A stretch of DNA of 15,444 nt, taken from positions 1-15,444 of the forward strand of contig JASJEI010000249.1 of NCBI GenBank assembly GCA_030064795.1. The letters are read 5' to 3'. Both the position numbers and the translations under genes were made by a program. The stretch is from Pleurocapsa sp. MO_226.B13 (GTDB lineage: Bacteria > Cyanobacteriota > Cyanobacteriia > Cyanobacteriales > Xenococcaceae). Shown in pieces: positions 6,484-12,520 of this stretch. Positions within the stretch are counted from its first letter, which is position 1, and the number at the start of each line of letters is the position of its first letter. Below the pieces are notes generated by a model, which did not search any database, had not been told where the DNA came from, and was given only the letters and a program-made list of their open reading frames with translations.

Positions 6484-6692
6484 CTACTCTGGATAGCCAC
6501 TAACTGCATCTGGATCGTTATCTCGTTTAGAACCTAATAACTCCAGGCGATCGACTTTGATTGTCGGACGCGATCTTTGTCCTCCAGTATTCTTATCCGT
6601 CCAGGTTTCTATCTTCAAAGAGCCTTGGACTCCGATTAATTTGCCTTTCTGGACGTAATTTCCAGCTACCTCGGCAGTTTTCCCCCACATTT
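6484..6692 (-). CDS. ssb: Single-stranded DNA-binding protein SSB, 3' exon
   Basis: Encodes residues 50 (last two bases of the codon) to 118 of SSB. It starts with the MWGKTAEVAGNYVQKG segment and continues through KLIGVQGSLK, RSRPTIKVDRLELLGSK and a short polar tail ending SGYPE. These are the middle and C-terminal strands of the OB fold that binds single-stranded DNA during replication and repair. It looks like a stand-alone 68-aa gene because AAATG happens to supply an ATG at 6690, but the N-terminal third of the fold is missing and is found 2.5 kb upstream on the same strand. The usual acidic DDDIPF-like tip, which recruits partner proteins, is absent, as I believe it is in some short cyanobacterial SSBs. 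Confidence 0.9.
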
Positions 6693-6696
6693 AGAA

Positions 6697-6768
6697 TAGT
6701 CGATGGAAATATCACTATTTCCACCTCTAATACAAAACTGTACGTGCAACTTTCACTGCATACAGCTC
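6697..6768 (-). ncRNA. Group II intron domains V and VI
   Basis: Domain V occupies 6768-6735, exactly 34 nt. An 8-bp lower helix (GAGCTGTA with TACAGTTT) contains the AGC catalytic triad. A 2-nt CG bulge follows, then a 6-bp upper helix (TGCAGT with GTTGCA) capped by a GAAA tetraloop. This is the metal-binding active site of the ribozyme. Domain VI follows: a 10-bp helix GGTGGAAATA / TATTTCCATC with GTGA loop, then a 3-bp basal TAG/CTA pairing interrupted by unpaired GA. That A (6700) is the probable lariat branch point. Confidence 0.9.
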
Positions 6769-6769
6769 C

Positions 6770-8485
6770 TCAATGACTTGGCTGCATTGGGGATATATCC
6801 GCGTACCTCTGCTGGTTTTCCATACCAGTTTTCTCGTGGTGACAGTGCCGATGAAGTAGTTGTAGATTTTTGAGTTCATCTTTACCACCATCGATTTTGG
6901 CGATAATATGATCTACATCCCATTTATCATTTGGCAGAAATTTCAGTCCGCACCAATTACAATTAGCGCTTTGTTTCTTCAGTAACAAATGAACTCTGGC
7001 TTTTAAGCCAGTGTATGACTTTAACCTATTTCCCCAGTAAGCCCAATCTCCGTCATAGGGACTTTTACCCCCTTTAACTTTGGTATGTCTTTTAATGGTT
7101 ACTTGGTTGTGAGTTCTGAGCATCATGGGTTCTCCTCCTTTTGGTTCACTGGCGAAGGTCATTCTTCCATTTATTTCCTTCCAGTATTTCTGGTAGGATT
7201 TTTTGTACTTGCCTGTCCTTCTCTTGCCCCAATGCAAAAGCATTGAGTATAAATCATGGTGAACTCTTTTGAAGGTTGTCGCACTGCATACTGTTCTAAA
7301 GTAGTTAGCCCATCCTCTAATAATTGGGTTGAGTTCAGTTATTAAATCGACCACTTTGGCATGGCGTTTTTTGTGAATTACGTCTCTTAGTTTCTGGACG
7401 TGATTTTTGACGCTCTTTTGGCTAGGTTGGATGATTGTTTTGAATCCCAATCTGGTTCTGTTGTCCTTAAATTGTTTGATGTTGAATCCTAGGAAATCAA
7501 ATCCAGGTTCTTCATCTCCCACTTTGCGGAGTGAGTTACAGATTCTAGTCTTTTCTTCTTTGAGGGTAAGTCCCATTGGTTTTAACCAATCTGAAATCTT
7601 AGATTTAATTTCGTGAATTACCTCCAGAGAAGGATGGATTACCACAAAGTCATCTGCGTATCTGATGATACTAGGCTTCCAGGGGTGGGAGCGACCTCCT
7701 ACCCTTTTAGTTTTAGAATATTGACTCCTGATTTCATCTATCATTCCATGTAGGGCGATATTTGAAAGTAAAGGGGATATTACTCCGCCCTGTGGCGTTC
7801 CTTCTTTGGTTGGAAATAGCGTGTCCCCTTCTAGGATTCCAGCTTTTAGCCATGCTTTGATTTGCCTCCTTAGCTTGGGAAAGGTATTAATTTTCTTAAG
7901 TAGTTCGGCGTGATTTATTTGGTCAAAACACTTGGCAATGTCTGCATCTAGAACGTATTTTACCTTCTGGTTGATTCCAGTGAAGATATGTTCTATTGCA
8001 TCATGTGCTGACCTTCCAGGTCTAAAGCCGTAGCTCGATTCCTCAAACTTCGCTTCCCACTCAGGTTCGAGAGCCATTTTAGCTAGTGCTTGTTTGGTTC
8101 TGTCCTTGATTGTGGGTATTCCCAACGGTCTTTTTTCCTCTCGCCCAGGTTTGGGTATCCAGACCCTTCTAAGAGCATTTGCCTTGTGGTCGATTCTCAG
8201 TTTGAGGGCAGATTCTAGACGTTGTGTGGGTTCGAGAGATTTAACTCTATCCACGCCAGCCGTGTTCCGTCCTTTATTATCCTGAGTTACTCTACGTACA
8301 GCTATACATCGCGCTGACCATGAGCGCATTAATGTTTTCTGAAGTTTTTGTACTGCTCTTTTGTCTCCACGTTGAGAGGCTCGATAAATTCGTTTTTGCA
8401 ACTTAAATACCGATCGTTCTAGTTTGCGCCAGTTGATGGTATTCCAATCCACGTTAGTCTCTAAACTCGTTTTAGACATATTCAT
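6770..8485 (-). CDS. Group II intron reverse transcriptase/maturase with HNH endonuclease
   Basis: The 571-aa intron-encoded protein aids splicing of its own RNA and drives retrohoming by target-primed reverse transcription. Visible RT blocks are RPLGIPTIKDR (119-129), YGFRPGRSAHDAI (152-164), LDADIAKCFD (179-188) with the first catalytic aspartates, GTPQGGVISPLLSNI (229-243), the YADD catalytic box (276-279) and FDFLGF (329-334). The maturase/X domain lies at about 355-435, with LNPIIRGWANYFR at 385-397. The C-terminal HNH nuclease has CNWC (509-512), DVDHIIAK (523-530), the GG at 533-534, and HRHCHH (545-550). All catalytic motifs are intact, so it is probably functional. ATG at 8485 is used; a second ATG two codons on is possible. 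Its stop lies only one base before domain V. Confidence 0.96.
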   Translation of the reverse strand: MNMSKTSLETNVDWNTINWRKLERSVFKLQKRIYRASQRGDKRAVQKLQKTLMRSWSARCIAVRRVTQDNKGRNTAGVDRVKSLEPTQRLESALKLRIDHKANALRRVWIPKPGREEKRPLGIPTIKDRTKQALAKMALEPEWEAKFEESSYGFRPGRSAHDAIEHIFTGINQKVKYVLDADIAKCFDQINHAELLKKINTFPKLRRQIKAWLKAGILEGDTLFPTKEGTPQGGVISPLLSNIALHGMIDEIRSQYSKTKRVGGRSHPWKPSIIRYADDFVVIHPSLEVIHEIKSKISDWLKPMGLTLKEEKTRICNSLRKVGDEEPGFDFLGFNIKQFKDNRTRLGFKTIIQPSQKSVKNHVQKLRDVIHKKRHAKVVDLITELNPIIRGWANYFRTVCSATTFKRVHHDLYSMLLHWGKRRTGKYKKSYQKYWKEINGRMTFASEPKGGEPMMLRTHNQVTIKRHTKVKGGKSPYDGDWAYWGNRLKSYTGLKARVHLLLKKQSANCNWCGLKFLPNDKWDVDHIIAKIDGGKDELKNLQLLHRHCHHEKTGMENQQRYADISPMQPSH

Positions 8486-9161
8486 TGCTAAATCACTTAT
8501 TTATCTCCAAGTCATCGTGAGACTTTGGGCGTATCCATAGCCATTACAGCTAGGCATTGGCTTCAGTCTCAATCTTTCCCTCTAGCACCATATAGATAGC
8601 TTCCTACTTGGGTTAATCGACCTACCCAAGAGATCCTAAAGGGTTTATTCGTTCCGAACGACCATTGTTTTGAGGCTTTAGGGTGACACAATCCGCCGAG
8701 GCTGTATTGGGATGCAGACTAGTCCACCTAGATGAATAGTCCTTTATGAATCTAATACGTCAACTTAGATTCCTTGAGCCTGTTGCCTTTTGGCTCTAGC
8801 GTGGTCAACTCATTTCGCTAGTTCTGGTTAACGACGGTTTTAGTGTCTTTGTATTCCTACCCATAACCTCCTGCTAGAAGGGATTCCCAGTGAGTTCTGA
8901 GTTACCTCCATTTCTTCCAAGCTGTTCACCATTAGGGTTGCTAGTTCCTAATAGTGTGGAAAATGCTTTCACTCCAGCATCCAAGAGGGTTAGACTTGCT
9001 AAGTTCAATCTGATTGTTAATTTTTATTAACTTCGTTATATTCCTTAACTCACTAACATGGTTCGTTCAGTTGTCAAAAGTCTAAGATTTAACTCTTATT
9101 TCTTTTGCAGCCTTTCCCCCGAATCCCTATTGGGACGCGGTTTGTGGCTAACGAATCGCAC
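8486..9161 (-). ncRNA. Group II intron 5' RNA region (domains I to IV start)
   Basis: This gene-free 676-nt stretch begins GTGCGATTCG and fits the size of domains I-III plus the start of domain IV, where the maturase gene lies. One candidate exon-binding site is CCAGA (8827-8823, about 335 nt into the intron), complementary to TCTGG at the end of exon 1 (9166-9162). Nearby AAACC (8840-8836) complements GGTTT in exon 1, but it is closer to the first site than usual, so at least one match may be chance. I did not fold the region fully. Confidence 0.75.
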
Positions 9162-9309
9162 CCAGATTAAACCAGTCTGGGCGATCGCTATTACGACTAC
9201 GGCGATCGACAGCTAAAGGTAATTTACACAAAACCGAACCCGATTGAAAGTGAATAATTTCTGGCGCGGCACCAGCACGACCGACTAAATTTACAACATT
9301 GAGACTCAT
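9162..9309 (-). CDS. ssb: Single-stranded DNA-binding protein SSB, 5' exon
   Basis: Encodes residues 1-49 and the first base of codon 50. It starts MSLNVVNLVGRAGAAPEI and runs through the LPLAVDRRSR strand to RPDWFNL, the N-terminal half of a cyanobacterial-type SSB OB fold. Without splicing, translation runs four more codons (GAIR) into the intron and meets TAG. Joined to 6484-6692 it gives 357 nt, coding 118 aa plus stop, of normal length for short cyanobacterial SSBs and continuous across NLE-MWGKTAEVA. The ATG at 9309 has no strong Shine-Dalgarno sequence. It is transcribed divergently from the membrane-protein gene at 9521. Confidence 0.92.
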
Positions 9310-11741: not shown

Positions 11742-12242
11742 CTACAGAAGTGATATTGCTTTCATTGACAGATAAAGTCTGGAAGATTGAGAAGCAAAAG
11801 AAGTAAAACCGTATTTCCGATAAAATCTAACGGCATTTTCATCTATTGCATCTACTACTACTGCTATGGACGCTATTTGTTCTGTATTTTTATAGGCTCT
11901 TTTCAGTGCGTTGACTAGCATTAATCTTCCCAAATGCTGCTTGTGGTAAGTCAAATCTACTGCTAATCTCCCTAACATTGTTGCTGGCAACCTGGGATAA
12001 CGGGGTAGTTTTTTAGCTACAGAAGCATTTAATTCTTCTACCTCTATAGTAAAAGCCGATAGAGTGTAATAAGCGATAACTCGGTTTTCAGGCTTATCTA
12101 CTAAAACAAATACGGTTGTGACTTTTCTTCTTTGGTCTTGAGATGCAGTTTTGATTAAGTAATGGTTCAAACTTTGAATTCCACAGTCAAAATCAGTACG
12201 ACTGTGTATTTTAGAGTTGAATAATTCGATTTTTAATACCAT
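11742..12242 (-). CDS. GNAT-family acetyltransferase toxin (TacT-like)
   Basis: A 166-aa GNAT protein of the DUF1778-linked toxin group, whose members acetylate the amino group of charged tRNAs and block translation. Family features present are FDCGIQSLNHYL (18-29) near the N-terminus, KTASQDQRRKVTTVFV (31-46), the LPATMLGRLAVD strand (85-96), the acetyl-CoA pyrophosphate-binding turn HKQHLGRLML (100-109) and the C-terminal FYRKYGF (140-146) with Y141, the expected catalytic tyrosine. The acetyl-CoA loop has K and H where the classic QxxGxG glycines would be, leaving only G105; activity may still be normal, since the family varies here. The start overlaps the antitoxin stop by one base (TAATG), indicating translational coupling. 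Substrate tRNA cannot be read from sequence. Confidence 0.88.
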   Translation of the reverse strand: MVLKIELFNSKIHSRTDFDCGIQSLNHYLIKTASQDQRRKVTTVFVLVDKPENRVIAYYTLSAFTIEVEELNASVAKKLPRYPRLPATMLGRLAVDLTYHKQHLGRLMLVNALKRAYKNTEQIASIAVVVDAIDENAVRFYRKYGFTSFASQSSRLYLSMKAISLL

Positions 12243-12520
12243 TAATAACCAAATATTTCTTTATGTTCTATTGCTGCTAATTTTAATGCTTCATTAGGTT
12301 CTGTAGGATTTAAAATTGCTTCAACGAATGCCTGGGATTCTTCTTTGTTTAGCTGCATCGATTGATGCTTTTTAATTATTTTCATGGCTGACTCTTGTAA
12401 AGTGGCAACCATAAAATCAGTTAATGTTACTCCTTGAATCTCTGCTGCTTGTTGCCACAAAGCCTTTGCAGCAGGATCGACACGAGCCTCTAGTCTGGCA
12501 AAGGATTTAGATTCATTCAT
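12242..12520 (-). CDS. DUF1778 antitoxin (TacA-like, ribbon-helix-helix)
   Basis: A 92-aa antitoxin that binds and neutralises the GNAT toxin encoded immediately downstream, and typically represses its own operon. The N-terminal ribbon-helix-helix DNA-binding part is seen in RLEARVDPAAKALWQQAAE (9-27), followed by the GVTLTDFMVATLQESA helix (30-45). The C-terminal part, with NPTEPNEALKLAAIEHKE (71-88), is the expected toxin-wrapping region and has the DUF1778-type NP-P-EAL pattern. The ATG at 12520 has no Shine-Dalgarno sequence; a 10-bp palindrome AATTTAAATT (12521-12530) lies directly before it. Gene order antitoxin then toxin with a 1-nt overlap is standard for this type II system. Confidence 0.9.
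   Translation of the reverse strand: MNESKSFARLEARVDPAAKALWQQAAEIQGVTLTDFMVATLQESAMKIIKKHQSMQLNKEESQAFVEAILNPTEPNEALKLAAIEHKEIFGY

What the first reader, a model, noticed from the sequence alone, without database searches (positions are those of the whole stretch)
6484..9309. ssb is split by an apparently intact group II intron
Exon 1 (9309-9162) and exon 2 (6692-6484) rebuild an in-frame 118-aa SSB, and all intron parts look functional: GTGCG, 34-nt domain V, bulged A, YADD and HNH. Bacterial group II introns usually sit in mobile DNA or between genes; one inside an essential replication gene makes SSB supply depend on splicing, unless a second ssb exists. The unspliced message stops 4 codons into the intron.
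Basis: partly seen in the sequence, partly recalled or inferred. Interest (0 to 1): 0.8.

Follow-up and report, generated by a model that had tools for sequence, protein, structure and literature searches.

The report
Homing intron inside a spare SSB gene
A cyanobacterial gene for a small single-strand-DNA-binding protein is cut in two by a complete, probably self-removing mobile intron; this is a recurring arrangement in cyanobacteria, and the gene is probably not the cell's main SSB.

Summary
Exons 9309-9162 and 6692-6484 join into an uninterrupted 118-aa SSB. The 2469-nt insert is a complete group II intron with a 571-aa RT/maturase/HNH protein; its EBS1 loop pairs 6/6 with the exon, and the eight relatives checked carry the empty site.

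Two premises change. (1) This is ssb1, the tail-less Alr0088-type SSB. A separate SSB with the canonical acidic tip was read in 12 of the 13 held genomes with an intron at this site, so SSB supply as a whole probably does not hang on splicing. The window's own genome is not held. (2) It is not isolated. Exact-pattern searches of 388 Cyanobacteriales genomes found ssb1 split at this site in 13 and at codon 22 in 15 (25 in all). Ten of the 13 showed no intact ssb1. Intron proteins group by site, and in some host pairs introns are far more alike than exons, as expected for horizontal homing.

In eight relatives (Laspinema/Oscillatoria-type) the same-site intron is about 1.4 kb and keeps a 200-225-aa protein without an RT domain, whose maturase part is under purifying selection (dN/dS 0.27). 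That form is the most novel part, but lies outside the window. I had no RNA evidence.

The parts
9162..9309 (-). ssb1 exon 1 (148 nt; codons 1-49 plus first base of codon 50); IBS1 ATCTGG = 9167-9162
6484..6692 (-). ssb1 exon 2 (209 nt; rest of codon 50 to stop)
   Evidence: joined product passes NF005674 and PF00436
6693..9161 (-). group II intron, 2469 nt, GTGCGA...TTCT
   Evidence: same intron at same site in L060, 82.5% identical over its length
8717..8742 (-). EBS1 hairpin (8-pair stem, 7 of 8 paired in the window; 9-nt loop)
   Evidence: stem covariation over eight sequences, 8 of 8 pairs changed on both sides, 0 of 500 shuffles as high
8726..8731 (-). EBS1 CTAGGT, pairs 6 of 6 (two G-U) with IBS1 ATCTGG
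6770..8485 (-). intron-encoded protein, 571 aa
   Evidence: TIGR04416 347.6 bits over cut-off 300; best PDB sequence match 6me0 maturase reverse transcriptase, E 7.5e-98
7478..8158 (-). RVT_1 reverse transcriptase domain (aa 110-336), YADD at 7660-7649
7181..7411 (-). GIIM maturase domain X (aa 359-435)
6827..6961 (-). HNH endonuclease domain (aa 509-553)
6735..6768 (-). domain V, 34 nt
   Evidence: RF00029, position
6693..6730 (-). domain VI with bulged A at 6700 (8th base from the 3' end)
   Evidence: RF00029, position; bulged A by inspection

Best explanation
The window carries ssb1, the tail-less (Alr0088-type) cyanobacterial SSB, interrupted at codon 50 by a complete group IIB, chloroplast-like mobile intron that homes to this site. 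Inferred mechanism: the ssb1 transcript is made with the intron; the intron protein is translated from within it, binds the RNA and helps it fold; EBS1 pairs with the exon end ATCTGG and the intron leaves as a lariat, joining ...AAT CTG G to AA ATG TGG. The freed RNA-protein complex can insert into intronless ssb1 alleles by reverse splicing, second-strand cutting by HNH and reverse transcription. Shown by computation: the parts, frame, exon pairing, empty sites, recurrence at the same site in other genomes, and a separate tailed SSB in relatives. Inferred: splicing, mobility, and that the window's genome also has the tailed SSB.
For: Intact parts and frame. EBS1-IBS1 6/6 in the window, G009 and eight reduced introns; EBS1 hairpin stem covaries. 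Empty sites in the 8 relatives examined. Same site split in 13 of 388 genomes by exact pattern. Site-2 proteins fall in a clade of their own (4 of 13 were in the tree); in 388 genomes the only listed full-length relatives at 70% identity or more lie at ssb1 site 2. G194 and G264 introns are 90.1% identical while exon 1 is 68.2% identical, third positions 37%; for window and G009 introns 83.3%, exon 85.1%, third positions 71%. In eight genomes whose intron lacks the RT, ssb1 exons stay under purifying selection, dN/dS 0.20 over 28 pairs. Tailed SSB ending D[DE]IPF in 12 of 13 site-2 genomes.
Against: No RNA or activity data. The window's genome is not held, so an intact second ssb1 there cannot be excluded. 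The 3' end is CU rather than AY. EBS1 pairing is poor in two same-site relatives: G194 2/6 and G264 4/6; G111 5/6; G010's EBS1 could not be read (contig end). G264's intron protein is cut by transposase-like ORFs and G009's protein is frameshifted in the HNH part. One MAG (G009) holds both an intron-bearing and an intronless ssb1.
Confidence: 0.83

Rival explanations
1. The interrupted ssb1 is a dead allele: the intron inserted recently and does not splice well enough, and an intact ssb1 or the tailed SSB covers the loss.
For: The G009 MAG has both an intron-bearing and an intronless ssb1; G264's same-site intron protein is broken and its exon 2 was not found; a separate tailed SSB exists in relatives.
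Against: Window exons and the intron protein are intact; EBS1 pairs 6/6. In the eight genomes with an RT-less intron, exons show dN/dS 0.20. 10 of 13 site-2 genomes showed no intact ssb1.
Confidence: 0.12
2. The interrupted gene is the cell's essential replicative SSB, so replication depends on splicing.
For: ssb1 is widespread (378 of 388 genomes match, most rows with a single match); PMC7283527 passages report SOS control of ssb1 in Anabaena.
Against: ssb1 lacks the acidic tail; the tailed SSB is present in 12 of 13 site-2 genomes and PMC3976300 identifies it as the major typical SSB of Anabaena. Essentiality of ssb1 was not tested here.
Confidence: 0.08
3. The window is an assembly chimaera that places an intron into ssb1.
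For: The window is a whole 15,444-base contig of uncertain source, and introns are often repeated sequences.
Against: Same junction in 13 genomes, including one on a 7.69-Mb contig; genes on both sides match those of intronless relatives L001 and L098; the lineage was not found elsewhere in the sampled genomes.
Confidence: 0.02

Closest known systems
Cyanobacterial chloroplast-like (CL2) mobile group II introns, e.g. the maturase solved as 6me0 (that this is Thermosynechococcus TeI4h is recalled)
   Same: GTGYG start, domain V, RT-X-HNH protein; the window protein matches 6me0 over residues 8-558, E 7.5e-98
   Different: Bacterial group II introns in general sit mostly outside housekeeping genes or between genes (PMC4424553 and PMC4649490 passages); this lineage was found only in ssb1 in the sampled genomes
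Trichodesmium group II introns in protein-coding genes (PMC4649490, passages read; dnaN and ribonucleotide reductase cases recalled)
   Same: Group II introns inside conserved coding genes, reported there to splice in vivo
   Different: Different host gene; here two sites of one gene are occupied by two intron-protein clades across many genomes
O.i.I2 of Oceanobacillus in radC (PMC4424553 section 9 read)
   Same: Bacterial intron in a DNA-repair gene with an intron protein that has lost RT motifs but no stop codons
   Different: The Laspinema/Oscillatoria ssb1 introns lack the RT domain between the N-terminal and X parts; O.i.I2 is of the ML class
MatK of the chloroplast trnK intron (PMC4424553 section 9)
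   Same: RT function lost, domain X kept, intron resident in a host gene (for the reduced relatives only)
   Different: MatK aligns with RT motifs 5-7 and binds several introns; the reduced proteins here keep the N-terminal domain and X only, and action on other introns is untested

Membership tests
Group II intron (IIB, mobile, IEP-bearing) | 5' end GUGYG | tested here: met
   GTGCGA at 9161
Group II intron (IIB, mobile, IEP-bearing) | 34-nt domain V and domain VI with bulged A | tested here: met
   RF00029 57.3 bits, gathering 40; positions; bulged A by inspection
Group II intron (IIB, mobile, IEP-bearing) | 3' end AY (recalled consensus) | tested here: not met
   ends CU; nine of ten other site-2 introns lined up end AC. 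A departure of the last base pair only; the domains are present
Group II intron (IIB, mobile, IEP-bearing) | EBS1-IBS1 pairing | tested here: met
   6/6 in the window; among relatives G009 and the eight reduced introns 6/6, G111 5/6, G264 4/6, G194 2/6
Group II intron (IIB, mobile, IEP-bearing) | protein with RT (YADD), domain X, endonuclease | tested here: met
Group II intron (IIB, mobile, IEP-bearing) | splicing and retrohoming activity | not testable with these tools
   no RNA or activity assay
Group II intron IEP class CL2 | placement in the CL2 clade of IEP trees | tested here: inconclusive
   closest solved relative 6me0; no tree with reference classes was built
Cyanobacterial ssb1 (Alr0088 type) | short OB-fold SSB ending after the fold, no P/G linker or acidic tip | tested here: met
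   118 aa, ends SGYPE; NF005674 equivalog; definition from PMC3976300 passages
Main replicative SSB (All4779 type) | C-terminal acidic tip | tested here: not met
   absent in the window protein; present in the separate gene of relatives
Degenerate-IEP, splicing-only group II intron (relatives, not the window) | RT domain lost, domain X retained under selection | tested here: met
   eight genomes; X dN/dS 0.27, linker 1.13; X aligns to window IEP 359-452, HHalign probability 99.9
Degenerate-IEP, splicing-only group II intron (relatives, not the window) | maturase activity without RT | not testable with these tools
   needs a splicing assay

The most novel reading that the evidence does not exclude
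A group II intron lineage dedicated to one bacterial host gene (ssb1, site 2) spans mobile forms with full RT and HNH (the window) and, in Laspinema/Oscillatoria-type cyanobacteria, a splicing-only resident whose protein has shed its RT domain and kept only the N-terminal domain and the maturase domain: a bacterial counterpart of the MatK route to organellar introns, possibly coupling ssb1 output to splicing.
Probability: 0.6. Interest if true: 0.72.

Novelty: new member of a known kind. Interest (0 to 1): 0.52.

Why it matters
Bacterial group II introns are said to sit mostly outside housekeeping genes, while organellar ones sit inside them and often lose mobility (PMC4424553 passages). The ssb1 introns give both states at one site in bacteria: full-length introns (the window, G194, G111) and reduced RT-less ones, with intronless sisters for comparison. 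That makes the step from mobile element to resident intron testable by RT-PCR and in vitro splicing. It also warns annotators: ssb1 reads as two fragments in such genomes, and calling this gene the essential SSB would be misleading.

Tried and rejected
In one search one of eight stretches (L063, genome G001) showed no recognised tip. A second ssb in the window's own genome could not be searched. Chance origin of the junction pattern was rejected: 13 of 15 site-2 hits and 15 of 16 site-1 hits lie in ssb1. The reversed-pattern control showed no hit for site 2 and one hit (G038) for site 1. Dropped as chance: L082, L084, L153. Not counted: G369 and G240, fragmentary ssb1 matches with stops. G377 has only a 45% relative. 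Ten of 388 genomes gave no ssb1 match at all; one of them, G249, has the codon-22 junction, the other nine were not looked into.

I first read an EBS1 of GTAGGT for G194, but this overlaps the hairpin stem; the loop itself pairs only 2/6, and the latter is reported.

AlphaFold of the reduced protein gave helical parts on both sides of a low-confidence linker, mean pLDDT 64; the Foldseek search found nothing at E 0.001 or better and is not used. The dN/dS of the N-terminal part (0.65) rests on low dS (0.12) and is weak. In the neutral simulation two close pairs kept open frames often (490 and 129 of 2000); only the distant pairs are informative (7 and 9 of 2000).

Sites of the other named members of the 70% clade (e.g. 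Planktothrix mougeotii, Symploca SIO1A3) could not be read. In one search at most three candidates per genome were scored and the match list was cut, 120 of 5443 proteins were listed. The tree held 4 of 13 site-2 and 7 of 15 site-1 proteins, no reduced ones. No phylum-wide survey was made. Papers PMC8919778 and PMC12702839 were seen in passages and added nothing on ssb.

Full report
What is there. Exon 1 (9309-9162) and exon 2 (6692-6484) join to a 118-aa SSB. The joined product passes the NCBIfam equivalog NF005674 at 176.5 bits against a cut-off of 161. The 2469-nt insert starts GTGCGA. It carries a 571-aa protein with RVT_N, RVT_1, GIIM and HNH and YADD, and a 34-nt domain V found by Rfam at 57.3 bits. 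The unspliced frame stops after four codons. The window is a whole contig: its protein's only listed contig is 15,444 bases long. No genome is held for it.

Empty site. The eight intronless relatives examined (L001-L004, L037, L098, L099, L107) read through the junction in the same frame. Where the held stretches reach, neighbours agree with the window: the 244-aa ORF upstream and the mannosyltransferase-like and glycosyltransferase genes downstream, both sides seen in L001 and L098.

Exon recognition. In the window the EBS1 loop CTAGGT pairs 6/6 with the exon end ATCTGG. G009 and the eight reduced introns have CTAAAT against ATTTAG, also 6/6. G111 has 5/6, G264 4/6 and G194 2/6. The stem around EBS1 has all eight pairs changed on both sides among eight distinct sequences; 96.9% of cells are paired against a shuffled mean of 69.8%, 0 of 500 shuffles as high. 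The eight sequences were picked by hand: seven from the alignment, G194. At codon 22, 13 of 15 introns contain CGAARU, which pairs with the exon ends there.

Which SSB. Nine of the eleven relatives' genomes first searched hold two or more SSB-family genes. The interrupted one ends after the OB fold. The other ends in an acidic tip such as DWDEIPF: 7 of 8 stretches read, and 10 of 10 site-2 genomes read. PMC3976300 (abstract and passages) reports that in Anabaena the tailed All4779, not the truncated Alr0088, is the major typical SSB. So the word essential is not justified for the window's gene; its essentiality was not tested here.

Recurrence. An exact pattern for the 5' junction at this site matched 15 of 388 genomes of the order; 13 are ssb1. 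A pattern for codon 22 matched 16 of 388; 15 are ssb1. Three genomes carry both, so 25 of 388 in all. Exact patterns make this a lower bound. ssb1 itself matched in 378 of 388 genomes. Of the 13 site-2 genomes, 10 showed no intact ssb1. G009 has an intronless allele as well, and G165 and G190 have further uninterrupted relatives at 55-61% identity. One genome, G245, has a third interruption, at codon 57...GGTAAAACAGCG G | GTGCGATTCG, resuming AA GTG GCG. All three sites lie after the first base of a glutamate codon.

Dedicated lineages. Relatives of the window protein fall from 69% or more (24 proteins, the window's own included) straight to 58% or less in the 120 listed. In the 388 genomes three listed full-length proteins reach 70%: G194, G009 and G111, each at ssb1 site 2; G264 has a partial one, also there. 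G194's locus is spread over three contig ends whose sequences overlap or continue one another. In a quick tree of 79 rows the seven codon-22 proteins form one group (SH-aLRT 100) and the four site-2 proteins fall with their 23 clade mates in another, apart from 45 other cyanobacterial proteins. The six of the seven ORFs re-checked lie inside the codon-22 introns. The tree flags a long branch, L101.

Movement. G194 and G264 introns are 90.1% identical over 1348 sites, but their exon 1 is 68.2% identical and third codon positions 37%. For window and G009 the figures are 83.3%, 85.1% and 71%. This discordance fits horizontal homing into the same site.

Reduction. In eight genomes (G089, G123, G140, G153, G165, G190, G218, G228) the site-2 intron is 1375-1469 nt. 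Its ORF of 200-225 aa keeps the N-terminal domain and a maturase domain, without the RT in between. Pfam gives RVT_N clearly, and GIIM below cut-off in two members but above it in P0010 and P0014. Profile comparison aligns the C-terminal part with residues 359-452 of the window protein, probability 99.9. Mean dN/dS over 28 pairs is 0.27 in the maturase part, 1.13 in the linker and 0.65 in the N-terminal part; the interrupted ssb1 exons have 0.20. Since an RT-less intron should not move by itself, conserved exons around it are the best available sign that splicing happens. A database search found 14 such proteins covering 96% or more of the query and three covering about 55%. PMC4424553 (section 9 read) gave one known bacterial case of a degenerate intron protein as of 2015, O.i.I2. 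PMC4649490 passages, however, say that intron proteins often appear truncated or encode only the maturase domain.

Literature. Searches for an intron in ssb in the held library found no such report (listings seen). Group II introns in conserved cyanobacterial genes are known (PMC4649490 and PMC4424553 passages).

Verdict. An ordinary full-length mobile intron in an unusual, repeatedly used address. The window itself is a new member of a known kind; the RT-less form at the same address is the new variant.

Noticed in passing
window 11742-12520 (-): A TacA1-type antitoxin (92 aa, PF08681, E 6e-24) directly followed by a GNAT acetyltransferase (166 aa): looks like a TacTA toxin-antitoxin pair.
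   Followed up: partly
L100 (G245): ssb1 has a further interruption at codon 57 (GGTGCGATTCG start, exon resumes AAGTGGCG) besides the one at codon 22: a third insertion site in the same gene, again after the first base of a glutamate codon.
   Followed up: partly
L097 (G264): The same-site ssb1 intron has its protein cut at residue 231 and two transposase-like ORFs follow; no exon 2 was found. Possibly a dying intron or an assembly break (transposase types judged by eye).
   Followed up: partly
L060 and L002 (one Pleurocapsa MAG): Intron-bearing and intronless ssb1 contigs that share upstream and exon-2 sequence: two strains or alleles in one bin.
   Followed up: partly
L061 (G010), L092 (G228), G165: ssb1 carries group II introns at both codon 22 and codon 50, so three exons must be joined.
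   Followed up: partly
L101 (G300): Codon-22 intron whose 499-aa protein ORF sits on a very long branch (0.68); the genome has 332 first-look candidates for intron proteins.
   Followed up: no
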